Source: a virus | Strand: one strand, 5' to 3' | Length of the DNA: 64,000 nucleotides | Virus record (IMG/VR): IMGVR_UViG_3300042526_000402 | Coordinates: 62,001-126,000 of that record | Shown here: positions 1 to 63,516 of the stretch, piece after piece | Position numbering within the stretch: position 1 is the stretch's first letter | Layout: each line of letters starts with the position of its first letter | Program-made: the position numbers and the translations under genes | The notes under the pieces: model-generated | The model's database searches: none | Seen by the model: only the letters and a program-made list of their open reading frames with translations | What the model was told of the DNA's origin: nothing

Positions 1-360
1 CCCTTAATAAATCAAGATTTTATGTTTATTTATGGTGTTAAGGATTATAAAAGATTAAGTACTTATTTTATTGGTCAACATGAATTAGCAAAAAGAGTCT
101 ATGCTGACTTTGATAAAACTAGTTTATATACAGATGCATATGTTGAATGCTATACAGAAGAAGATGATAGTTTCTATTTAAGCTTTGTTCTTAAAAAAGT
201 TGAATTAGGAATTATTATACATGAGATAACACATCTTATGCAGCATATCAGAACCCGCTTTTTTCCAAATGGAATAGAAAGAGAGTTTGAAGCTTATCTT
301 ACTGAATGGATATTTAATGAAATATATAAGATATTAAAAGATAATAAACTAATACAGTAA
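1..360 (+). CDS. HExxH metallopeptidase-like protein, probably 5'-truncated by the window
   Basis: The frame is open from base 1, so the ATG at 22 may be internal and the real start may lie outside the window. Counting from that ATG, residues 67-71 read HEITH, the zinc-binding and catalytic signature of zincin metallopeptidases. It sits in a hydrophobic helix (GIIIHEITHLMQHI) and is followed about 20 residues later by acidic positions (REFEAY) that could supply a third ligand. There is no signal peptide or membrane segment. The protein is small for a peptidase, so it may be a minimal phage zincin or an inactive relative. It heads a tightly packed plus-strand block with the next ATG two bases after its stop. 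The coding call is firm. Enzyme activity and substrate are unknown. Confidence 0.6.
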   Translation, partial: PLINQDFMFIYGVKDYKRLSTYFIGQHELAKRVYADFDKTSLYTDAYVECYTEEDDSFYLSFVLKKVELGIIIHEITHLMQHIRTRFFPNGIEREFEAYLTEWIFNEIYKILKDNKLIQ

Positions 361-32198: not shown

Positions 32199-34931
32199 TT
32201 AAAAAATAAAAGGAAAAGTTATATCACTATACATAAAACCACCCATTTTAAGTGGCGGTGTTTTGTCTGTTGCTGGATATTGAGCTAATATAGCGGCTTT
32301 AGCATCAGCATCTAAATCTGAACTTTCCGTAGTTTTACTTTGAGAATCTTTTAAACACTTAGCTAATGCCTCTCCAGATAAACCTAATTTTTTACAGTCC
32401 TCAGCATTACTAAAATAATCATTAGCTGTAGTTGGAGTATGTTGTTTAGCTTTTGTTGGATCAAATGTAACTCTACCACCTGTTCTAGGATCTGTTTTGT
32501 ATTGAGGATGCATAGTATTCATAGCTTGAGTCTTAGCAGCATTGGTAATTCCTGATACAGTTTGATTTATCACGTCATTAACTGATGCTCTCTTAAAATT
32601 ATCAAACTGTTGATTAGCTACTGTATTTTGGTCATACATCTTAGCTTGATTAGCTTGATTCATTGAAGCCTCTTGATTGTTAATATTTGCAATATTACTT
32701 TCAAATTGGTTTGCAATGTTTACATTGGCATTATTGTACTTAGCCATTACATCCGCAGCATTTTTAGATGCTTGTCCTTGTATAGAAGCAGATCTAGCTG
32801 ATAATGCTTGTGGTCCTGCAAACTGAGCCATACCAGCAGTTTGAATATTTGCTTGTTCTGCATTAGCAGCAAGTTCTCTAGTAGGATCCATAAAAGTAGG
32901 TTTTGGTGTTTGCAAGTCTACTCTTGCAGCTCCCATAGGCATATACTTTTTAGCAGAAAATAAATTCATAGCTGCACCTGCAGTCTTGATTTTATCTTGT
33001 AACCAGAATGGAGCATCTTCTTCTGTAGGCTGTTCTACAGTTTCATCTTTTTCCTCTGTGTTAATAACAGTACCATCTTCAGTTTTTACTTGTGGTTGTT
33101 CATCATCTACATATTCTCCTTGGTTATTTGCAATACCATAACTTTGAGCAGCTGTTGTGTTACCTTCATATCCATCAATAGGTGAAGTTTGAGCAAACAA
33201 TTTACCACCAGCAGTTTCATCAGTATCACCTGTATGATATAAAAATTTACCACCTGAAGCATCTTTAGGATCACCTAACATGTTTTCTAAAGCATAAGCT
33301 TCATTAGCGTCAGTATACTTACCAGATCTAAAATCATTGTTTAACTGAACATAACCTCTACCAACAGATTGAGCTAATTTTACATCTAAAGAACCTTCTT
33401 TTGGTGCAACTGTAATACCTGCTTTTCTTTGAACAGCTTGTAAGCTGCTCCAATCTTGTTTTTCATATTTATCAATTTCAGCTTGTGCTTCTTTTACATC
33501 AGTAAACACACCTGCTTTTACAAGGTCATCAGCACTTTTTAATTTTTCACCACTGTTAGTAAACATAGCTGTATTTACACCAGTTTCTTTAAGTTTATTT
33601 GCTCTTCTAGTCTGATCAAGCATTATTTTTGCTACACTATCTTCAGTTAATGTTCCATTTTCAATAGCTTTTAGCATTGCTGGATCAACTTTACCATTTG
33701 AATAAGAAGACTTATCTTTTATCTGCATCAAAGTAGACTCATACAATTTCTTTTTTACAATAGGATCTTTTAAAGTTTCTTCCAACAGTGCTTCTTGAGC
33801 TCTATTTATTTTAGCTAATTGTGTAAGATCCTTACCATCAAAAGTTTCACCTTTTGGAGCAATGTATTTTTGTTTCTTACCATCTTTTATGTAATCAACA
33901 TCTTTACCTTTATTGTCATACCTCAGTCTTCTGATTTCTGCAGGAGTCTTACCTGTTATATCAACTTTCTGTCTTTCTTTTACTTCACCTTGTGTTTGAT
34001 ATCTATTTAATGCACCGCCTCTAGCATACATAGGAGAATTATTTCTACCCATGTAATTTCTTGGATTAGCTCCCATTGCCATACCATATTCTGCTTGTGG
34101 TACTGAATCTGCAAAAGGCATATCATATCCACCCATAGCCATACCGTATTGAGCCATTGGTTGTTGCGGAGCTGCTTGAGGCATTGCTACTGGTTGACCT
34201 TGATTCATTCCTTGAGCTTCATCTTGCAATTCTGTATTAGAATTTGCAGTTTCATCTTCAGCAAGTTTACCTTCAATTTGTTTAGAAAATTGAGCAACAC
34301 CAGGATCTAAGAAACTTTCTTCTGAATATTTGTTTTCTTTTACAGTTGGTTGAGATACTTTAGCAATACCTTGAGGGAAACCTTTCTTACCTTCTTGTAC
34401 AATTGCTAACATACCAAGTTTATTTTGGTAGTTTTTAATCATCAACTCTGCAGTTTTTTTATCAATACTATCAGAATTAGAATCTTGAAGTATCTTTCTA
34501 TACTTCTCAATATCATATTGTTTTGCTAATTGAGCTGGAGTGTAACTTTTCTTACCTTTAGAATTTTTACCAAACATGGTTAATAATTCTGGTTCTTTTA
34601 CACTCATACCTTTAAAATCACTGTAGATAAAAGTATCATCTGGTAAGTTTAATGGAACACCACCATTAGAGTGTCTAGGACCTTTAATAGTTTTGTGTTC
34701 AGCCATTCCATCACCATTGATATCACCATATACAGTTTCACCTCCTTCAGCTTCTAAATTAGCATCTTCTCTAGGAACAGCTGTCATATACTTACTGGAT
34801 TTCAGCTTTGGCTGTCCTATGTAAGTATTATAGTCTGCACCACCCATTGCTGGTACATCATTTGCTAAAGAACCTTGTACTTGGTAACCTGTTCTAGCTT
34901 GCGGTAATTTTGTTATTCTAACCCTTATCAT
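32199..34931 (-). CDS. putative virion cargo/structural protein with GG-motif linkers
   Basis: This 910-residue protein opens with MIRVRITKLP. It contains a compact segment with EAEGGETVYG, a GPRHSNGG element and PDDTFIYSDFKG (about 60-110) that I recall from crAss-like cargo proteins. The following region (KSYTPAQLAKQYDIEKYR) is helical. It then turns to low-complexity Q, M, A and G (about 235-310), with recurring short GG elements such as MGGYDMP and ARGGALN. Near the C-terminus there is an N, A and Q-rich helical stretch, and the protein ends with KMGGFMYSDITF. No enzymatic motif is visible. Likely an internal virion protein; the assignment depends on position between the other cargo genes. 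Confidence 0.6.
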   Translation of the reverse strand: MIRVRITKLPQARTGYQVQGSLANDVPAMGGADYNTYIGQPKLKSSKYMTAVPREDANLEAEGGETVYGDINGDGMAEHKTIKGPRHSNGGVPLNLPDDTFIYSDFKGMSVKEPELLTMFGKNSKGKKSYTPAQLAKQYDIEKYRKILQDSNSDSIDKKTAELMIKNYQNKLGMLAIVQEGKKGFPQGIAKVSQPTVKENKYSEESFLDPGVAQFSKQIEGKLAEDETANSNTELQDEAQGMNQGQPVAMPQAAPQQPMAQYGMAMGGYDMPFADSVPQAEYGMAMGANPRNYMGRNNSPMYARGGALNRYQTQGEVKERQKVDITGKTPAEIRRLRYDNKGKDVDYIKDGKKQKYIAPKGETFDGKDLTQLAKINRAQEALLEETLKDPIVKKKLYESTLMQIKDKSSYSNGKVDPAMLKAIENGTLTEDSVAKIMLDQTRRANKLKETGVNTAMFTNSGEKLKSADDLVKAGVFTDVKEAQAEIDKYEKQDWSSLQAVQRKAGITVAPKEGSLDVKLAQSVGRGYVQLNNDFRSGKYTDANEAYALENMLGDPKDASGGKFLYHTGDTDETAGGKLFAQTSPIDGYEGNTTAAQSYGIANNQGEYVDDEQPQVKTEDGTVINTEEKDETVEQPTEEDAPFWLQDKIKTAGAAMNLFSAKKYMPMGAARVDLQTPKPTFMDPTRELAANAEQANIQTAGMAQFAGPQALSARSASIQGQASKNAADVMAKYNNANVNIANQFESNIANINNQEASMNQANQAKMYDQNTVANQQFDNFKRASVNDVINQTVSGITNAAKTQAMNTMHPQYKTDPRTGGRVTFDPTKAKQHTPTTANDYFSNAEDCKKLGLSGEALAKCLKDSQSKTTESSDLDADAKAAILAQYPATDKTPPLKMGGFMYSDITFPFIF

Positions 34932-34940
34932 AATTCAAAG

Positions 34941-37778
34941 TTATATATATTCTACTTCTCCTCCATTAGCAAGGAACTCTTCTAATTCTTCTTCAGTCAT
35001 TTCAACTTCATCATCTTCAGCATAACCACCTTCTTGCATGTAACCACCATAGTTATAAGACTTTGCAGATGAACCATTTTTTAAATATCTTTTTGCAACT
35101 TCTTCATTTGTAGTTGTATGAATTACTTTTCCATTTGTATCACGTACTATATATGTTGGAGGATTAGTAAACCTATGCTCTATTGTTCTACCATCATTCT
35201 CTTTTTTCTTATAATTGTTAAGTCTTTCAAGATGTTCCTGTGAATTTTCATATGTACTATTTTGTCCACCATCTTGCATGTATCCACCTTCTTGACCATA
35301 TGCAAATCTACCACTTGTATCACTACCCATTTGATCATATCTAAACTGACCCAGTTGTTGACCATAGTCTACATAATCACCTCTGTCTTTTGAGTTAGAT
35401 GCTGCATACATGTTATCGGAAGTGAAATTGTTTTCATACATTTCCTTTTCCTGTTTAGCTGTATCAAGATTATTCATAAACCCTGTTACAGCAGTTGCCC
35501 CTACATTAAAAGCATTAACACCATCTTCACCAGTAAAGTTACTTGGAGCTCTTTGTTTATCAATTGCAATTATATCATCATTTTTTGGTTGTTCTTCTTT
35601 TTTAGGATCACCCAAAAATTGTGTTGTCAATTGATCAGGCATTCCTTTTAAATTATTAGGATTCATAGACATATTATCACCTAAACCATTATTCTTAGAC
35701 ATAATATTACCTAACTGAGTTGTAGTAACAGTCGGATCTGATTCTTTTTTTTCTGGAGGTCCTATTTGTGCTTTTGGTAAACCACCATATCTAAAAAATC
35801 CATTATCCATTCTATCTTCTACTTGCATTCTTGATTGCACTTCATCAGCTGTAATTTCTCTATCTGGTTCTTCAAATAAACCTTTATCATATTTAGCTTT
35901 TATCAGCTCCATATTTTTACTATTATCAGGTCTAAAATGTTTAAGATTATTAAACTGGTTAGCCAATCTTAACTTGCCTTTACTTAAAGTTTCTTCTTCA
36001 TCTTCTACATCTTCGTCATCATAAAAGGTTTGTAATTTTGTTCTTGCATCATTTTCTTTTTCTTCAAAGGGTATCATTGACTCTCTTTCTGCATCCAAAT
36101 CCATTTCTTCTTTTGCTAAAGCATCTTCTTTTGCAATTTGGTCTAATAATGTTTTTTCTTCTGAAGCTTCTTTAGCTGCTGCTTCATCAATTTGTTGTTG
36201 TTCATAATCAATCATATTTTTAGAATCATAATCTTCTTCTGTAAAGCCTGGATCTGGACCAGCTACAATAAAAGGTGAATCAAAGCGTTTACCTTTTTCA
36301 TCACGTGTAAGATAAACATTACCTTTATATGGAAAGTTATCAGACTTATCTATATCAGATACAAAAGATTTATCTTTATCCCAAGCATCATCACTTCTTT
36401 TTTGATCTCTTGCTAAGTCTTCTTCACTATCATATCTATACTCAGCATGAACACCTTTGTTAAATTTAGCATCTTCTGCTAATGACTTAGCACCTCTTCT
36501 AGCCTCTCTACCTAATTGTCTATCTCCTCTTCTGATTTCTCTTTTTGCTTTACCAGATAAGTCATCCCAAAGTTCTTTTTCAACACCGTGTTTTAAGTTT
36601 TTATCTTTATCAGTAGGTACTATTGGTTTACCAGTTGATTTAGAATAATATTCAGTCCATTGTTTAGGTCTTCCAAATAATCCTCTTTTGTGAACTGTTT
36701 TAGCATATGGATTTAATCCTTCAAAAGAATCTTTGTATTCTTCTTTTGTTTTTGCATTATATGCTTTACCTGATATGATACCTCTTCTTGCCTCCGGTAG
36801 AAAATCTGCTTCATAAAATGGTAAGTCAGTTCCCCCGTACATAAACATTTCCGGTTGTTCTTCTCCTACATAACCACCACTTTGAAAACCTTGTTCCATT
36901 GTATCATCTTCAGGAGCAGGACTGTCATCTGAAAATGTTTGAGCAATTTTCATTAGTTCAGGCTTGTTAGACTTTATCATTTTATTATACAAGTCTTCAA
37001 TCTTTGCCTTATTAGCTTGCTCTTTAATAAGGTTCATGAAATTATTCTTTCTTTTTGATACTTCATCATCCATTGTATCAAATTTATTCCCTTGACCAAT
37101 TGATTCATCTTGACCTTCTCCTCCTTCTAGTAATTTTTTAAGAACATTATTTACAAAAGATTTTTTACTTCCTCCTCTTTTGTATTCAGGCTCTTCATAA
37201 AAACTTAAAGGAACTGCAGATTCATAATAATTATTCAATCCTGGTACAACTGTATCTGGTTGTTCTAAGTAACTGTAATCAGGTTGATCTTGAGAATCTT
37301 CAGTAGATCCGCCATCTTGATATTCATCAGACTGAGCACCATCATCTTCAGAACCATATGAATTAAAATAGTCAGTTGCTTGATCTGGTTCTTCTTCTTG
37401 CTCTGACTCTTGTTGCTCTGCAGATTCTTTCTCAGCTTTTTCTTTCTCTAACTGAGCAGTTTCTTCTTCAGCTTGTTTTTCAGACACACTGTTATCAGGA
37501 TTCAATTCACCAGCTGCAACCATTTGATCAACAACAATTGTCAATAATTTTTCAGCAATAGCTTCAGACATACCAGATGCAACTAACTCACCAAAGACAT
37601 CATCTATCTCTTCCTCATTCTTTAACTTTTGATAAATACTTTGCATGTAAGTATTTATCATTTGTTTCTGATCAACTTGTGTACCAGCTTGAGCTTTTTC
37701 TAAAAAAGCTTTTGTCTTATTTACATAAGAACCCTGTTGATTAGGGTCCTTATATATTCTTACCATTCTTTTATTCAT
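34941..37778 (-). CDS. acidic, disordered putative virion cargo protein
   Basis: This 945-residue protein has a helical N-terminal domain of about 100 residues, then extended E, Q, D and K-rich stretches (for example about 105-165) that should be disordered or coiled-coil. At least eight short GG elements occur (YQDGG, YKRGG, FQSGG, MYGG, FRYGG, GQEGG, MQDGG, MQEGG), mostly flanked by Y, M, Q or charged residues. The C-terminal EMTEEELEEFLANGGEVEYI (926-945) repeats an acidic motif found twice in the neighbouring 2241-residue protein. It has no catalytic motif. The gene has its own leader with a TA-rich element. Probably an internal cargo or scaffold-like protein. Confidence 0.6.
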   Translation of the reverse strand: MNKRMVRIYKDPNQQGSYVNKTKAFLEKAQAGTQVDQKQMINTYMQSIYQKLKNEEEIDDVFGELVASGMSEAIAEKLLTIVVDQMVAAGELNPDNSVSEKQAEEETAQLEKEKAEKESAEQQESEQEEEPDQATDYFNSYGSEDDGAQSDEYQDGGSTEDSQDQPDYSYLEQPDTVVPGLNNYYESAVPLSFYEEPEYKRGGSKKSFVNNVLKKLLEGGEGQDESIGQGNKFDTMDDEVSKRKNNFMNLIKEQANKAKIEDLYNKMIKSNKPELMKIAQTFSDDSPAPEDDTMEQGFQSGGYVGEEQPEMFMYGGTDLPFYEADFLPEARRGIISGKAYNAKTKEEYKDSFEGLNPYAKTVHKRGLFGRPKQWTEYYSKSTGKPIVPTDKDKNLKHGVEKELWDDLSGKAKREIRRGDRQLGREARRGAKSLAEDAKFNKGVHAEYRYDSEEDLARDQKRSDDAWDKDKSFVSDIDKSDNFPYKGNVYLTRDEKGKRFDSPFIVAGPDPGFTEEDYDSKNMIDYEQQQIDEAAAKEASEEKTLLDQIAKEDALAKEEMDLDAERESMIPFEEKENDARTKLQTFYDDEDVEDEEETLSKGKLRLANQFNNLKHFRPDNSKNMELIKAKYDKGLFEEPDREITADEVQSRMQVEDRMDNGFFRYGGLPKAQIGPPEKKESDPTVTTTQLGNIMSKNNGLGDNMSMNPNNLKGMPDQLTTQFLGDPKKEEQPKNDDIIAIDKQRAPSNFTGEDGVNAFNVGATAVTGFMNNLDTAKQEKEMYENNFTSDNMYAASNSKDRGDYVDYGQQLGQFRYDQMGSDTSGRFAYGQEGGYMQDGGQNSTYENSQEHLERLNNYKKKENDGRTIEHRFTNPPTYIVRDTNGKVIHTTTNEEVAKRYLKNGSSAKSYNYGGYMQEGGYAEDDEVEMTEEELEEFLANGGEVEYI

Positions 37779-37792
37779 AATACTGCTGTATA

Positions 37793-37802
37793 ATATAATA
37801 TA
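37793..37802 (-). promoter_or_regulatory. candidate late-gene leader element (TATATTATAT)
   Basis: The 58-base gap upstream of the 945-residue gene contains TATATTATAT on the minus strand, 14 bases before the start codon, then CAGTATT. The same ten-mer lies in the leaders of the probable capsid gene and the 690-residue fibre gene. It could be part of a promoter for the phage or host polymerase, but low-complexity AT sequence produces such matches easily. Confidence 0.3.
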
Positions 37803-37820
37803 ATAAATTTAAACTTATAA

Positions 37821-37841
37821 ATTAAACTTTTAATGTTTAAT
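37821..37841 (-). terminator. weak AT-only hairpin after the 2241-residue gene
   Basis: On the minus strand ATTAAAC pairs with GTTTAAT (seven base pairs, seven-base loop) over the stop codon of the upstream gene and is followed by TTATAAGTTT. The stem contains one G-C pair and the U-tract is interrupted, so termination would be weak. It sits just before the leader of the 945-residue gene. Confidence 0.25.
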
Positions 37842-40800
37842 CAACTAAAGCCATACCTGCACCTGTAAAACTATTTTTATTTGCATAACCATAATTCCAA
37901 TCCTTTAATTTCTTATCAGTGATATTACCTTTTACAGAAGAAGAATAACTACCGGCATCAGCTACACCAAGAACTAACTTATTAGGTTGTAATTTGTATA
38001 GTTTTTTAATTTCTTCACCTTCTTTCTTAATTGCATTTGGTGAACCTGCATAGTGCACATATCTTGTTTTTCCTTTGTAAGGGAATATAAATACAACAGA
38101 TTGACCAGATGAATAGTCATATACATTAGGATCTTTACCAGATGAAACTGGTATGGTAGCTTTTGTACTTCCTTTTTTAGTCCAATAAGTATGACCAGGA
38201 AAATTATCATCAGCAACTTTTTTATTAAAGTCAATGTTGTCAAATTTTTCTTGTCTAACTAAGAATGTATTTTTATGCAAATCTTTAGCTGGTATATCTT
38301 TCTTAGGAACATATTTTACAGCAAAGTTTCCATCTTTTTGTTTTTCTAATTTACCTACAAAACCATCAGGTTTAAGATTGTTATAGTAATCTTTTGTTAA
38401 AGGATGCATATAACCTGTTAAAGGACTCTGATCTAGGAAGTGCATTACTGCTCCTTTAGATTTTATGTTTAAGTCAGGATTTCTTTCTGCTCTTGTTCCA
38501 TACACTTGTACTTTCATTGGATCATCATTAGAAGCAGCTACTCTAAACTGCCATCTTGAACCTTTTTCATTACCACCTAAATCATCAAATCTTTTTGTAG
38601 TTCTGAATTTTTCATTTTCTTTTTCTTCTTTTTCTTTATAAGTTTCAAGTTTAGGTAACTTATAACTTGTAGCTTCAACTTGATCAGACAAGTCATATTT
38701 TTGTGCAGGTTTTTTAATCCATGCTGGTGCTGATTCATCAATCCAAGAATCAAGTACTCCTGCATAATCTCTTTTTTTAGAGTTAATAGTAGTAACTAAA
38801 TTATTTCTTTCTTTTAATTTATTATCAAAAGCAGCTTTAACTTGTTTTCTTTTCTCTGGAGAATGTTTAGGATTAGTGTAATCATAATACAAGTTTTGTA
38901 AAGATTGATCATAGCTACCCATTCTATTAGTTAAATTACTAATTACTTTGTATCCAGAATCTTCTTTAACAACTTTCTCTTCTGTTTCTGGTTTTACTTC
39001 AGTAATCTTAGAACCTTTCTTAAAACTTATCTCAGGTTTTAAAGTATTTTGAAACTTAGTTATATCTTGAGGTGGTTTTGCTTTTACAACAGGTTTTTTA
39101 ACTGGGAATTGTTTTCCATTTACTTCAGGTAAGTTAGGTGAAACAATATCAAATTTACCAGGTTCTCCTTGAAGATCTTGAAAATTTTTGATAGGTGCTA
39201 TTTTTTCAGTATCAGATACAATAGGTTTTAAATTTAATCCTTGTTGAATTTTTAACATTCTAGCTTTAAACTCTTGAGTTGACTCTTGAGTTAATGGTTC
39301 TTTCACAGTTAATTTCTTTTTAGGAGCTGTTGGAAAAAATGAATTCTGTAACTGTTTCTGTTTTTTAATACTATCCGGAGTTAAACTGTCTCTTATAGCA
39401 TTAACATAGTTTTTTAACTCAGCTTCTTTTAATTTAGTTTGATTAACTTGTTTACTTTTTTCAAATTGTTTAACCGTATTATTAACAGGTTTAGGTTTTA
39501 AGTTTGAATCTGATATTAAATTTAATTTCTTAACCGGGATGTTCTGATACTGTATAGTTTCAGATTTCATTCTTGAGTCAGGTGTTTTTAAATTTACTGG
39601 TGCTGCAGTTCTTTTTAATATTTCATCAACACTTCTTACAGGAATATTTGCTGTATTAACTGCTTTAGATTTACTATTAGAAGCACTAAATAAATTAGGG
39701 TATCTTTTCATAAGACCCTCTTTTGTACCAATTTGTTGAGCAACTAAATCTTCTAAGGTATTACCTTTCTGAACTAGTGTACTTACTATTTGATCATACT
39801 TATTGTAATCAAAAGTAGGCTTACTTTCAAGATTTTCTTTAACTACAGATGTAGCATCAGCTAATAGTTTTTGTGCTAAAGCTACATTTTGTTCATATGA
39901 ACCATCAGTTAAACCTTGTCTTTTAGCTTCAGACCACGGTGTACCAGTTTTCTCTTCCCATATTTTATATGGTAATTGACCACCAGATTGCATCTCAGGT
40001 TCATCTACTTCTTCAACTATATAACCTTGGTTTATATAGTCTTGAATCTCATCATCTGATAATTCAGTAACAACACCTCCTTTTTTAAATCTTCTTGGTG
40101 CTTTCTCTTCTTCTTTATTTAAAGCACCAATACTAAATGCTGCTGGGACAACAGCAGGAAATACTTTTAGTAATTTACGTTTTACTTCATTAGAAGTAGT
40201 ATTTTTAAAATGGTTATTAACATCTTTTACAGTAATATAAAAATCATATAATTCATCTGAACCTTCAGATTCTAAATTTTTAACTAAACTAGTAGCATCA
40301 GCAACAGATAAATTATACTCTTTCATATAATTTTTAACTGCTTTTAATCTAGCTATTTGTAAATCAGAATGTAACTCATTAACACCTGCCTGCCAACTTT
40401 CAGTACTGTAGCTATCACCTGGTTTTTCAAGTTTTGTAGGTTCAACCATAGCTTCTTCAAATTCTTTAGCTAATTTACTATCACCTTTTTTAGTTACATA
40501 ACCTGTAGTTGGATCCATGTCAGCTAAACCTCTAAGCCAATTTTTATATTTTTGATTGTCATGACCTAACTCATGTATATTTACTTCTCCAATAAATGTT
40601 GGATCAATCATTTTTTGTTCAATATACTTGATTAATTCTTGATCATCTAAATCATTAGTATTATTTTTTTTAAATGCATTTAACCAAGTTTTTGGTTCTA
40701 AAAGTTTAGCTTTTTTTTCTGGAAGTTTTTTGTAATATACAGGAGGATTAGGTTGAGAAGCTAATGTAATTGTATTATTCTTAGTATTAACACCTGCAAT

Positions 40801-43800
40801 CTTATTAAGATTCTCCTTTATAAAATCTTTATCATAATCTGGTAAATCCATCATAGATTGTTCATCAACGTGTACAAGTTTTGGATCTCTCATATGAGGT
40901 AGTTCTACTTCACCACTATAGTCTAAAGAAGTAAGTCTTGAAGGATTGTTTGTTTCATGAAGTATATTATTTACTTTTGACTTAAATAATGGATCTATTA
41001 ATTTGTCTTGTTCAGAAGCTATTTTTTTAATCTCCTCCTTAATTAAATCTTTTTGTTTTTCTATACTTTCTACTTTTGGTTGTAGTTCTTTAAATTTAGG
41101 ATTTGATTCTAAATTTTTATTTACAAATTCTTCAAGTTCATCATCTATTTTTTTTATCTCTTCAACATCTTCTGCACTAGATGGATTATATTTTTTAGAA
41201 AAATATTGTTTTACTGACATAGCTTTATGTTTAAAAAAATCTTCATACAGAGGTGATTTTAATTTTTCAAGCTCACCTTTTTCTTCAAATTCTTTCATTG
41301 TATAACCAGCTTGAAGTTTTAATTTATCTTTTATATCTTCAAGCTCTTTAAATTTTTTAGGATCAGTATAAACCCATCTATCATTAACTTCTGTAGCTTC
41401 ATTAAATGCTTTAGTTTGTGCTTCCCTTGTTCTTAATTCTTCTGGAACATATGCCCAATTGTCAACTTTTTCTGTTTTTAAATTTTCTGGTAGATTTTTT
41501 TCTAATAATTCAGTTTCCTCTTTACTGTATGTACGAACATTGTTTTGCCTGTAAGGATTATCAGGATGCATTCCATATCTATATTCAGTGTTTGTTTTAG
41601 CTAATGCAGGAATAGTTTCATTACTTCTGCTAACATCTATCACATCATCTAATACTTTATTAGATTTTACTTTATTTAGCTTTCCTAATTTTTTTAAGTA
41701 TTTAGGAGCACTTAATGCTTTATTACCTAAACCTAAACCTAAAAAATCCAGCATGTTTAAACCAGTTTCTGAAACTGCATTACCTACATTTCCTAAAGTA
41801 GGATCTTCAGCAACTTTAGAATAAGACTTTCGTACATCACTGTCTTTATCCAAAAATTCAGCTGTTCCATAAGCAGCACCGGCACCAGTAAGAAAATTAT
41901 TTACTGATGCTCCTGGTAACCATGATGGGGCTGCATTATAAGCAGCTTTGGTTGCTTGTAAAAAAGAATTTTTACCAAGTTTATTTAATGTAGCATTTGC
42001 AACAGCATCACCTACACCTACAAGTCCTTCACCTAAAGCTGTTGCTCCAGATCTTATTAATGGTGCAGCTCCTATTGCTGTAAGAGCAGCTGGTGCCCAA
42101 AACCAATCTGAATTACCAGCACCTTGTGCTTTAGAATATAGATTTTTTGTTTGCTCTGTTGCCCAAGAATCTTTCTTAGGATCAAATGTCTTATTAAAAA
42201 CTTTACCGTCTTTACCTATAACTTTTGTATATACAGTACCATCTTCTTTTCTAACCTTAATAGTTTTATTTCCTTTTTTATCTGTATGTTCTTTAGTAGA
42301 TATTATTCCTTTCTGAGCTTGAGTTAAACCACCTGGTACATCAGTATTTGTATCATCTTTTTTTGAAATGTTATTTAACATCCAAATAATTTCATCATCT
42401 GTAAAAGTATTTTTTAAATGGTTCATTGGATCAAAACCTTCTTTATCACCTTTTTCAAATTTAAAGTTTTTTAATTTTTTATAGTATGTATCAGGAGACA
42501 CTCCTTCAGTAAAAGGATCATATAACTTATTATCTTTTGCTGCTTTTCTAATTGAATTAAGTCTAGCTCTAGTTTCTGTTGGGTATGCAACATAATCTCT
42601 ATAATAGTCATTATAAAACTTTTCATTATCGTAATAAGAACCAGTATCCTTATATTCTTGATTATCTTTTGTATTTTTTGGTTTATGTTTATTTATATAA
42701 TCAATATCTTTTTGAGGAATAAGTCTTCTTTCTTTTCCCGGCAATGGTCTATCAGATGAATGAGATAACTCATGCTCAGATGTATGTTCTGTCCCGATAC
42801 CCTGTGGAAAAATTGTAATTTCACCTGTTTCAGATACTGATTGACCTCCTATAGATGGATCATCTAATGGTTGTGGTAATAGTTTTAATGGGGGTGTATT
42901 TTGTAACTGTTTGTTTCGGGATTTTAAAAAATAGTTGTAAGTGTCATCATTTTTTGATGATTTTTTAAGCATCTCTTTATATTTAGGAGAATTATAATAT
43001 TCTTCCATATAATCATAAGATTCTCTAAACTTTTTATTTTCTTCTATTTCTTTTTCTTTTTGCTTTGGGTTAGACTTAAAATTTGAGTACTTATACATAG
43101 ATTCAGGCACACATAATCCATTATCACCTGCGTTAGGGTCAAATATATAACCATCAGGACATATTTGAGAACCACCCTCTTTAGCTTGATTAAGTTCTGG
43201 TACAGATATATCTTCTACTATATAACCACCTCTTCTGTATTCTTCTATTTCATCATCTGTAAGTTCTGCTTCTACATATTCTTCATCATTTTTTGTTTGA
43301 GTGTCTCCACTTGGTAAATATGGAAATAGCTTAGTTGCTTTTGCTCCTTCAGTGAACTTATTTAAAGCATTAATAAGTTTCATACTAGATTCCCATTTTT
43401 CAGGATTAAGTTTTGGAGAAAGTTTTGTCAAAGCTTTTGTTGTTAGACCTAATACTTTATCAAGATTTTTTCCTCCAAGTTTTCTATATGCATTATAAGC
43501 ATTTGCTATTTTATCATTGTATCCAAAATATTTAACAGCATCAAGAAAAAGTTTTTCCCCACCAGCAAGTATTTTTCCAGATTTACCAATTTTACCTATA
43601 AGAGGAAGTGCACCTAATATTTCTAATCCTGTTTTAGGATCAAATAAACCATTTTCATCATAGGCTCTTCTAACATCATCCCATGATGTAATTCCTGTTG
43701 GATCTATAAATTCAGCAATATCTTCAAGTGTATTATCTTCAGCTTCCCACCCCGATGGGATAGTTGCGTCACCTTGCATAGGTACATAAGGTTTTCCAGT

Positions 43801-44562
43801 AAGGGGGCTAATATATTTATTATTTGGTATTATCTTTTCAGAGTATTTACCATCTTTAGTTTTTACTTGTACAACTTCATCTCCTGCTTCATTAATGAAT
43901 CTATTAGTTACTGTGCCATCTTTAGACTTATGTGTTTTTTTAGCACCACCTTTTTGAGCTGAAAGTTGTCCTTCTCTCATTTGAAATTTTTGTTGATATG
44001 CAGGTGATGTTCTGTTTATATTAGTTGGATCTGTTTGATCATGCATATACTGTTCATAATTTCTTCTAGCTTTTTGGTTAAGCATTTCAATAATATCATA
44101 ATTATAAGATGGTTGATCCATATATTCTGAATCTCCCGGAGGATATATTATAGTATCTTTTTCACCACCATCTTGAAAGTATTCTGCATTTGGATCATAT
44201 ACTTTATTCTTGTAGTTTTTAAGCAAAGGATGTGTAAGCATTATTTTATTAGTACCAGATAAACTTCTAGTCTTTTTCTTAGTACCACCTTTTCTCATCT
44301 GTGGATATTCATCTACATAATCTGCTCCAGGAAAAGTATATTCTGCTCCCGGAAGCATTATCTTTCTTTGACCATTATTGGCTACACCTAATACAGGATA
44401 ACCTACTCCTTTCATAGTAATATCATTACTAGGAATTCTAGTTGGTAAACCAGGATATTTCCACTGACCCATTGGATCATTAATTATATCTTTAGGTTTT
44501 TTAGGAGCTTTAGCTTTGTCCAACTCAGCTGAAGCTTTAGATAGAGCTTTTTTATTATACAT
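37837..44562 (-). CDS. giant putative cargo protein with two zincin motifs
   Basis: This 2,241-residue protein has two separate HExxH motifs, HELSH at 597-601 and HELGH at 1330-1334. The second is in a hydrophobic strand-helix context (GEVNIHELGHDNQ) with an acidic segment (NELHSDL) downstream. Hydrophobic, alanine/glycine-rich segments occur near 310-325, 815-850 and 1465-1480. An acidic motif ELTDDEIEEY...GYIVED (433-451) recurs as ELSDDEIQDY...GYIVEE (1500-1518). GG elements (RKGG, QDGG, QKGG, EGG, KKGG, QSGG) punctuate linkers. The C-terminal approximately 200 residues form a compact domain (FIFPYKGKTRYVHYAGSPN; DAGSYSS) that I cannot assign. Its ATG overlaps the muzzle gene stop (TAATG). 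A large ejected protein with protease modules is the best guess. Confidence 0.66.
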   Translation of the reverse strand: MYNKKALSKASAELDKAKAPKKPKDIINDPMGQWKYPGLPTRIPSNDITMKGVGYPVLGVANNGQRKIMLPGAEYTFPGADYVDEYPQMRKGGTKKKTRSLSGTNKIMLTHPLLKNYKNKVYDPNAEYFQDGGEKDTIIYPPGDSEYMDQPSYNYDIIEMLNQKARRNYEQYMHDQTDPTNINRTSPAYQQKFQMREGQLSAQKGGAKKTHKSKDGTVTNRFINEAGDEVVQVKTKDGKYSEKIIPNNKYISPLTGKPYVPMQGDATIPSGWEAEDNTLEDIAEFIDPTGITSWDDVRRAYDENGLFDPKTGLEILGALPLIGKIGKSGKILAGGEKLFLDAVKYFGYNDKIANAYNAYRKLGGKNLDKVLGLTTKALTKLSPKLNPEKWESSMKLINALNKFTEGAKATKLFPYLPSGDTQTKNDEEYVEAELTDDEIEEYRRGGYIVEDISVPELNQAKEGGSQICPDGYIFDPNAGDNGLCVPESMYKYSNFKSNPKQKEKEIEENKKFRESYDYMEEYYNSPKYKEMLKKSSKNDDTYNYFLKSRNKQLQNTPPLKLLPQPLDDPSIGGQSVSETGEITIFPQGIGTEHTSEHELSHSSDRPLPGKERRLIPQKDIDYINKHKPKNTKDNQEYKDTGSYYDNEKFYNDYYRDYVAYPTETRARLNSIRKAAKDNKLYDPFTEGVSPDTYYKKLKNFKFEKGDKEGFDPMNHLKNTFTDDEIIWMLNNISKKDDTNTDVPGGLTQAQKGIISTKEHTDKKGNKTIKVRKEDGTVYTKVIGKDGKVFNKTFDPKKDSWATEQTKNLYSKAQGAGNSDWFWAPAALTAIGAAPLIRSGATALGEGLVGVGDAVANATLNKLGKNSFLQATKAAYNAAPSWLPGASVNNFLTGAGAAYGTAEFLDKDSDVRKSYSKVAEDPTLGNVGNAVSETGLNMLDFLGLGLGNKALSAPKYLKKLGKLNKVKSNKVLDDVIDVSRSNETIPALAKTNTEYRYGMHPDNPYRQNNVRTYSKEETELLEKNLPENLKTEKVDNWAYVPEELRTREAQTKAFNEATEVNDRWVYTDPKKFKELEDIKDKLKLQAGYTMKEFEEKGELEKLKSPLYEDFFKHKAMSVKQYFSKKYNPSSAEDVEEIKKIDDELEEFVNKNLESNPKFKELQPKVESIEKQKDLIKEEIKKIASEQDKLIDPLFKSKVNNILHETNNPSRLTSLDYSGEVELPHMRDPKLVHVDEQSMMDLPDYDKDFIKENLNKIAGVNTKNNTITLASQPNPPVYYKKLPEKKAKLLEPKTWLNAFKKNNTNDLDDQELIKYIEQKMIDPTFIGEVNIHELGHDNQKYKNWLRGLADMDPTTGYVTKKGDSKLAKEFEEAMVEPTKLEKPGDSYSTESWQAGVNELHSDLQIARLKAVKNYMKEYNLSVADATSLVKNLESEGSDELYDFYITVKDVNNHFKNTTSNEVKRKLLKVFPAVVPAAFSIGALNKEEEKAPRRFKKGGVVTELSDDEIQDYINQGYIVEEVDEPEMQSGGQLPYKIWEEKTGTPWSEAKRQGLTDGSYEQNVALAQKLLADATSVVKENLESKPTFDYNKYDQIVSTLVQKGNTLEDLVAQQIGTKEGLMKRYPNLFSASNSKSKAVNTANIPVRSVDEILKRTAAPVNLKTPDSRMKSETIQYQNIPVKKLNLISDSNLKPKPVNNTVKQFEKSKQVNQTKLKEAELKNYVNAIRDSLTPDSIKKQKQLQNSFFPTAPKKKLTVKEPLTQESTQEFKARMLKIQQGLNLKPIVSDTEKIAPIKNFQDLQGEPGKFDIVSPNLPEVNGKQFPVKKPVVKAKPPQDITKFQNTLKPEISFKKGSKITEVKPETEEKVVKEDSGYKVISNLTNRMGSYDQSLQNLYYDYTNPKHSPEKRKQVKAAFDNKLKERNNLVTTINSKKRDYAGVLDSWIDESAPAWIKKPAQKYDLSDQVEATSYKLPKLETYKEKEEKENEKFRTTKRFDDLGGNEKGSRWQFRVAASNDDPMKVQVYGTRAERNPDLNIKSKGAVMHFLDQSPLTGYMHPLTKDYYNNLKPDGFVGKLEKQKDGNFAVKYVPKKDIPAKDLHKNTFLVRQEKFDNIDFNKKVADDNFPGHTYWTKKGSTKATIPVSSGKDPNVYDYSSGQSVVFIFPYKGKTRYVHYAGSPNAIKKEGEEIKKLYKLQPNKLVLGVADAGSYSSSVKGNITDKKLKDWNYGYANKNSFTGAGMALVD

Positions 44563-63123: not shown

Positions 63124-63516
63124 CTAGCACTTCTTTTTAGTAGCACCACCCATTTTTTTCTTGGTCATTTTAGCACCAGCTATTCTATCTGCTGCAGTAG
63201 CTTTAGGGTTTTTATCTACACCAGCTTTAACTGAAAGCATACCAAAAGTAGAACCACCTTTTTTAAAGCTTGGTCTTTCAGATACACATCCACCAGTAGC
63301 AGATCTAACTGTACCTGGAGGGCAAGAATGTTTAACAGCAGTTACTTTAGAACCACCTTTTTTCATAGACTCCATACCTTGCATATTAGGTCCTGTAGCA
63401 CCTGCATTAGGGATTCCATATATTTGTCCTTTTGGTGTAGCAGAACCAACAGTAGTCTTCATTGTAGAACCTCCTGTTTTATATTTCATACCACCACATT
63501 TCATACACTTTGCCAT
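63124..63516 (-). CDS. small basic GG-motif protein, possible virion component
   Basis: This 130-residue protein is rich in K, G, S and T. It begins MAKCMKCGGMKYKTGG and includes repeated GG elements (KTGGS, KKGGS, FKKGGS, KMGGA) together with CPPGTVRSATGGC. There is no regular secondary structure prediction from composition; it is probably disordered and nucleic-acid or virion-associated. The GG elements are the same type as in the cargo proteins to the left. Tight packing between two tiny basic genes supports it as a real gene. Confidence 0.55.
   Translation of the reverse strand: MAKCMKCGGMKYKTGGSTMKTTVGSATPKGQIYGIPNAGATGPNMQGMESMKKGGSKVTAVKHSCPPGTVRSATGGCVSERPSFKKGGSTFGMLSVKAGVDKNPKATAADRIAGAKMTKKKMGGATKKKC

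What the first reader, a model, noticed from the sequence alone, without database searches (positions are those of the whole stretch)
32199..44562. Punctuating GG motifs and a repeated acidic TDDEIEEY...GYIVE element in the cargo proteins
Seen: short elements such as YQDGG, FQSGG, MQEGG, KKGG, RKGG and QSGG recur in the 910-, 945- and 2241-residue proteins and in the 130-residue small gene, mostly in linkers. ELTDDEIEEY/GYIVED (433-451), ELSDDEIQDY/GYIVEE (1500-1518) and EMTEEELEEF/GGEVEYI (C-terminus of the 945-residue protein) share one pattern and lie next to GG elements. Inferred: a processing, packaging or docking signal used across different virion proteins. Double-glycine sites are typical of protease-processed precursors elsewhere.
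Basis: partly seen in the sequence, partly recalled or inferred. Interest (0 to 1): 0.7.

Follow-up and report, generated by a model that had tools for sequence, protein, structure and literature searches.

The report
Tagged, glycine-punctuated swappable phage cargo proteins
A crAss-like phage builds its injected virion proteins from interchangeable blocks joined at short Gly-Gly punctuation marks, and most of them end in the same 20-30-residue tag, which looks like a shared address label for loading into the virus particle rather than a cutting site.

Summary
The repeats are real and far beyond chance. In the window [YFM][QKR]xGG occurs 6 times in the 945-aa protein, 5 in the 2241-aa and 4 in the 130-aa (expected 0.1 each); the 910-aa protein lacks this exact form. 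The TDDEIEEY..GYIVE element is a ~28-residue mini-module. In cargo regions of 43 relatives a profile finds 117 copies (best reversed decoy 3.2 bits, true copies mostly 28-48). It is the C-terminus of 37/40 gene-B and 34/44 gene-A proteins, usually with one more copy inside gene A, and of none of the gene-C, gene-D or RNA-polymerase proteins. Gene A is a mosaic of swapped domains (lysozyme, amidase, VanY, NlpC/P60, SET, HExxH); 53% of block boundaries lie within 5 residues of a GG (random 10+/-2%; GG ranks first of 400 dipeptides). Codon choice is not conserved, so selection acts on the protein. No prohead protease stands beside terminase-portal-MCP, and S78 and C39 peptidases are absent from 12 long records. 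Best reading: a C-terminal docking/loading tag plus flexible GG joints on ejected proteins, like T4 capsid-targeting sequences but C-terminal and apparently uncut. Binding and loading are inferred, not shown; proteolysis is less likely but not excluded.

The parts
37837..44562 (-). gene A (2241 aa): mosaic cargo protein, first gene after the muzzle gene
   Evidence: same place in relatives, 43 cargo-region stretches fetched; mosaic by BLASTP
44284..44562 (-). conserved N-terminal region of gene A (IPSNDITMKGV...FPGADYVDEYP), closing with MRKGG
   Evidence: predicted beta domain pLDDT ~90 in relative L083; found in the MS/MS-detected virion protein gp040 of phage phi4:1 (E 8.5e-10) and in Lbo-JY46 (E 3e-17)
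43957..44157 (-). insert (residues 136-202) between FQDGG and AQKGG, missing from relative L085 with the cut close to the two GG elements
43171..43290 (-). internal module YVEAELTDDEIEEYRRGGYIVEDISVPELNQAKEGG (residues 425-464)
   Evidence: 57-92% identical between most relatives while the flanks are swapped
42319..43170 (-). swapped block with HELSH metallopeptidase-like motif (residues 465-748, HExxH at 597), between AKEGG and AQKG
   Evidence: L083 and L105 go from LNQAQKG straight to IISTKEHT; motif
40561..40575 (-). second HExxH motif (HELGH, residues 1330-1334)
   Evidence: no Pfam match
39979..40089 (-). second module FKKGGVVTELSDDEIQDYINQGYIVEEV...MQSGG; in most relatives this type is the C-terminus of gene A
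37840..39978 (-). extra ~713 residues after the C-terminal-type module, apparently a fusion; no close relative among the gene A proteins compared
34941..37778 (-). gene B (945 aa): GG-punctuated, C-terminally tagged protein
34944..35054 (-). YGGYMQEGGYAEDDEVEMTEEELEEFLANGGEVEYI: C-terminal tag of gene B
   Evidence: C-terminal in 37 of 40 relatives; related C-terminus in phage Lbo-JY46
32199..34931 (-). gene C (910 aa): conserved presumed cargo protein; GGs of another type, no module
63124..63516 (-). 130-aa Lys-rich protein with MKCGG, YKTGG, MKKGG, FKKGG
   Evidence: family of small basic proteins whose segments are reshuffled, borders enriched at GG

Best explanation
Genes A and B encode presumed cargo/ejection proteins that share one C-terminal docking tag (helix LTDDEIEEY + strand GYIVE, ~28 residues), probably recognised by one common partner during head-tail assembly, such as the portal-crown cargo protein, portal or scaffold. 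Gene A is a delivery vehicle: a fixed N-terminal region, one internal tag copy, then exchangeable enzyme blocks (mainly cell-wall hydrolases and peptidases) and a final tag. The [YFM][QKR]xGG elements are short flexible joints between blocks; they let blocks be swapped without breaking folds and probably help the chain unfold and pass the tail. Shown: sequence conservation, carrier specificity, C-terminal position, mosaicism with borders at GG, selection at protein level. Inferred: presence in this virion, binding, loading, and passage.
For: Tag: 117 profile hits, best decoy 3.2 bits; C-terminal in 34/44 A and 37/40 B proteins, 0/39 C, 0/40 D, 0/28 RNAP; three neighbouring genes each end in a copy in L189/L190. 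It stays while the neighbouring domain is replaced: SET, lysozyme, VanY, amidase, NlpC/P60, Zn peptidase in different gene As. GG: 159 vs 17 (A), 169 vs 22 (B), 62 vs 18 (C), 13 vs 9 (D), 11 vs 18 (RNAP). Boundaries: 107 of 201 within 5 residues of GG vs 19.9 expected, first of 400 dipeptides; 32 of 99 vs 9.5 after collapsing similar contexts. Codon choice at GG is background, 220 different DNA sequences in 290 elements; identical residues of the tag use different codons 31-41% of the time vs 40% expected. Linkers with GG have low predicted order. Virion: phi4:1 proteins in the same gene positions are MS/MS-detected, and gp040 has the gene A N-terminal domain and four [FY]QxGG.
Against: No binding partner is known and none could be tested. 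If the tag were the general loading signal, the 1051-aa protein and the polymerase subunits should carry it, since their crAss001 counterparts are packaged without it. The internal copy is predicted with low confidence (pLDDT ~45-60). The window's own gene A has lost the strictly C-terminal position by fusion. Loci are related, so counts overstate the number of independent events. Alignment ends can be drawn to a shared GG. Presence in this phage's virion is inferred, not measured.
Confidence: 0.5

Rival explanations
1. The GG elements are cleavage sites of a maturation protease: A, B and the small basic protein are precursors cut at [YFM][QKR]xGG during head assembly, the tag being a removable address as in T4.
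For: Punctuation between domains in several proteins, consensus just before GG, elements in predicted disordered linkers, repeats in a small basic protein, reminiscent of GG processing in other viruses (own knowledge).
Against: Terminase, portal, putative scaffold and MCP stand together without a recognisable protease; S78 and C39 not found in 12 records although controls ring; S77 and C48 searches had no ringing control. A crAss001 cargo segment spans three GGs unbroken; the crAss001 paper's text does not mention cleavage or proteases.
Confidence: 0.17
2. GG elements are only flexible linkers kept by selection for disorder and extrusion, with no partner, and the C-terminal module is a structural cap of the last domain.
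For: Low predicted order around GG; partial unfolding on ejection is proposed for crassviruses (PMC10172136).
Confidence: 0.25
3. The repeats are DNA recombination sites, conserved as nucleotides to let phages swap cargo blocks.
For: Block borders lie at the repeats.
Against: Codon use at GG pairs is background and 290 elements have 220 DNA sequences; synonymous codons of the tag are near saturation, for the C-terminal copies of gene A exactly at expectation.
Confidence: 0.04

Closest known systems
T4 capsid-targeting sequence (CTS) on internal proteins
   Same: Short shared peptide on different internal head proteins that are delivered with the DNA (PMC7697877)
   Different: CTS is N-terminal, ~10 residues, and is cut off by the head protease; here the tag is C-terminal, ~28 residues, has internal copies, and no protease was found
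Crassvirales cargo proteins C1/C2 (crAss001 gp45, gp46)
   Same: Genes between muzzle and RNA polymerase genes; gp45 is long and carries repeated A[YF]GG elements
   Different: No module in gp45 or gp46; no significant sequence or fold match of gene C to gp45
Mosaic ejection proteins of short-tailed phages (T7 gp14-16, P22)
   Same: Domain swapping, lysozyme domain carried by different proteins (PMC8954989)
   Different: No shared tag or GG-marked joints were found described for them in the passages read
Double-glycine leader peptides (peptidase C39)
   Same: Acidic helix followed by GG
   Different: Here C-terminal or internal, wrong spacing, no C39 peptidase found
Encapsulin cargo-loading peptides
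   Same: C-terminal tags on varied enzymes (own knowledge)
   Different: No sequence relation tested; different shell and no extrusion

Membership tests
T4-type capsid targeting sequence | N-terminal position on the cargo | tested here: not met
   copies are C-terminal or internal
T4-type capsid targeting sequence | cleaved by a phage prohead protease of the S77/S78 type | tested here: inconclusive
   S78 absent from 12 records with controls ringing; S77 search without a ringing control; no protease in the terminase-portal-MCP block
T4-type capsid targeting sequence | sufficient to direct a foreign protein into the head | not testable with these tools
   needs an experiment
Double-glycine leader / C39 | consensus LSxxELxxIxGG at the N-terminus with the matching spacing | tested here: not met
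   L is at -13/-14 instead of -12 from the second G, and the position is C-terminal or internal
Double-glycine leader / C39 | C39 peptidase encoded by the phage | tested here: not met
   0 of 12 records, 8 of 14 controls ring
Crassvirales-type virion architecture | muzzle-ring-cargo-RNA polymerase gene order | tested here: inconclusive
   1804-aa protein matches the annotated muzzle of csAssE-Sib (24.6%, E 4e-29); large genes follow in matching order; no taxonomic tree was made
Crassvirales C1 (gp45) | gene C homologous to gp45 of crAss001 | tested here: inconclusive
   hhalign not significant with gp45 alone; E 1e-4, probability 57%, 49 columns with an alignment that also holds phi4:1, csAssE and Lbo-JY46; no fold match
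Mosaic ejection proteins | exchange of enzyme domains among related phages | tested here: met
Mosaic ejection proteins | present in the virion and ejected | not testable with these tools
   only by position and by phi4:1 MS/MS annotation

The most novel reading that the evidence does not exclude
A general cargo-loading code of these phages: any protein block fused upstream of the C-terminal tag through a GG joint is loaded and injected, so the phages exchange injected enzymes as interchangeable cassettes using one address label.
Probability: 0.33. Interest if true: 0.82.

Novelty: new variant of a known kind. Interest (0 to 1): 0.62.

Why it matters
How the large cargo proteins of crAss-like phages are selected for the virion is not explained in the crassvirus papers read here. 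A shared C-terminal tag and defined joints would give a short testable address and a way to recognise injected enzymes in uncultured phages by sequence alone.

Tried and rejected
Named phages: no tblastn match for the 945- and 2241-aa proteins or for the tag peptides. PHROGs and Pfam: nothing useful for the window's A-D; the SutA-RBD hit at the gene B C-terminus (E 0.046, below cut-off) was taken as chance. DNA recombination signal: rejected. gp45 homology by HMM, hhalign and fold: inconclusive. HMMs of B, C and D found no counterparts in the four named phages. Fold search of the gene A model: no match at E <= 0.001. The module was not found in cellular genomes (a degenerate-pattern search only). 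I first took the 529-aa protein used as anchor for the MCP; a better MCP candidate, not tested against a profile, lies outside the window.

Full report
Setting. The window is bases 62001-126000 of a 135,860-base IMG/VR virus record. The minus-strand genes run 1804-aa protein (muzzle-like: it matches the annotated muzzle of csAssE-Sib), then A (2241 aa), B (945), C (910), D (1051), then three giant proteins taken for RNA polymerase by position and size. This is the order muzzle-cargo-RNA polymerase known from crAss001. No named phage matches A or B. Fifty related IMG/VR records were searched and 43 stretches downstream of the muzzle gene were fetched and read.

Observation. A profile of the module finds 117 copies in the fetched cargo proteins, most at 28-48 bits; the best reversed decoy has 3.2. 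Of proteins with a true C-terminus, 34 of 44 A and 37 of 40 B end in it; none of 39 C, 40 D and 28 RNAP do. Some of the remaining A proteins end in a visibly related variant (GDEIDEATMKKLQKLGYTFEKI, L097, L107). Phage Lbo-JY46, whose muzzle is 25% identical, ends its gene B with FQQGGYNLGEEIDLSPEEVAKLIELGYDFEVV. A wider search found the module in 69 IMG/VR matches; 55 of the 68 loci have a muzzle gene within 4 kb, and none was confirmed in cellular genomes.

GG elements. [YFM][QKR]xGG is 6, 5 and 4 times present in B, A and the 130-aa protein against about 0.1 expected and nearly confined to them in the genome. Across relatives the preference is Y/F/M at -3 and Q/K/R/A at -2 of the GG, and it is absent around GGs of D, polymerase and other structural proteins. 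The 910-aa protein does not carry the exact element.

Mosaicism. Gene A keeps its N-terminal region of about 130 residues and the module while other blocks come and go: lengths of complete versions run from about 320 to 2240 residues. L085 lacks window residues 136-205, cut close to FQDGG and AQKGG; L083 and L105 pass from LNQAQKG straight to the block that in the window follows LTQAQKG. Of 201 block borders 107 lie within 5 residues of a GG, 19.9 expected; no other dipeptide comes close. After collapsing similar contexts it is 32 of 99 against 9.5. The small basic proteins show the same trend: 79 of 213 borders within 3 residues against 46+/-6. Blocks with known domains are cell-wall hydrolases, peptidases and SET domains.

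Protein or DNA? GG codon pairs follow background use and synonymous codons of the module are near saturation. Selection acts on the protein.

Mechanism. The tag stays at the C-terminus of A and B while their contents change, which is what an address label does. GG joints lie in linkers of low predicted order. In crAss001, cargo fragments are seen both at the portal and in the tail and partial unfolding is proposed (PMC10172136). The proposed steps are: tag binds a shared partner, protein is loaded, GG joints allow extrusion. All three of these steps are inference.

Processing. No protease stands among terminase, portal, putative scaffold and MCP (names there rest on position and sequence appearance). 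S78 and C39 are missing in 12 long records; S77 and C48 remain open because no control rang. In crAss001 gp45 the modelled segment 425-552 runs through three GGs. Cleavage at other sites is not excluded.

Limits. Relatives are not independent samples. Kinship of gene C to gp45 is not established. The virion location of A, B and C in this phage is inferred from position, and from phi4:1, where proteins at these positions are annotated as MS/MS-detected and one (gp040) shares the gene A N-terminal domain.

Noticed in passing
G000:C1:1-12000 (L132) and 122165-135860: The record carries two versions of part of the structural region (529-aa protein 90% identical over 175 residues, two GG-rich small genes). 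Relatives are about 118-122 kb, so this may be a circular genome whose ends come from diverged strains.
   Followed up: partly
L131:9246-9890; L087:10187-10831, L104:10583-11218, L106:10967-11602, L125:10632-11267: ORFs of about 211-214 aa, by eye like homing endonucleases, sit between terminase and portal and, in several relatives, between genes C and D.
   Followed up: no
window 22-360 (+): Small 112-aa protein with an HExxH motif (HEITHLMQHI), no Pfam match.
   Followed up: no
window 37840-39978 (-): About 713 residues fused after the C-terminal-type tag of gene A have no close relative among the other gene A proteins; a short piece (residues ~1515-1578) matches separate ORFs of 374 and 396 aa in two other records.
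   Followed up: partly
L003-L081, upstream of the 529-aa gene: Family of small Lys-rich proteins made of shuffled segments between MKKGG-like elements, one segment resembling a dockerin or EF-hand loop (GGFPDLNKDGKVTKADILKGRG).
   Followed up: partly
L083-L125, C-terminus of gene C: Most gene C proteins end in a different conserved tail, (F/Y)(V/M)YxDxxYPFIL or a variant of it.
   Followed up: no
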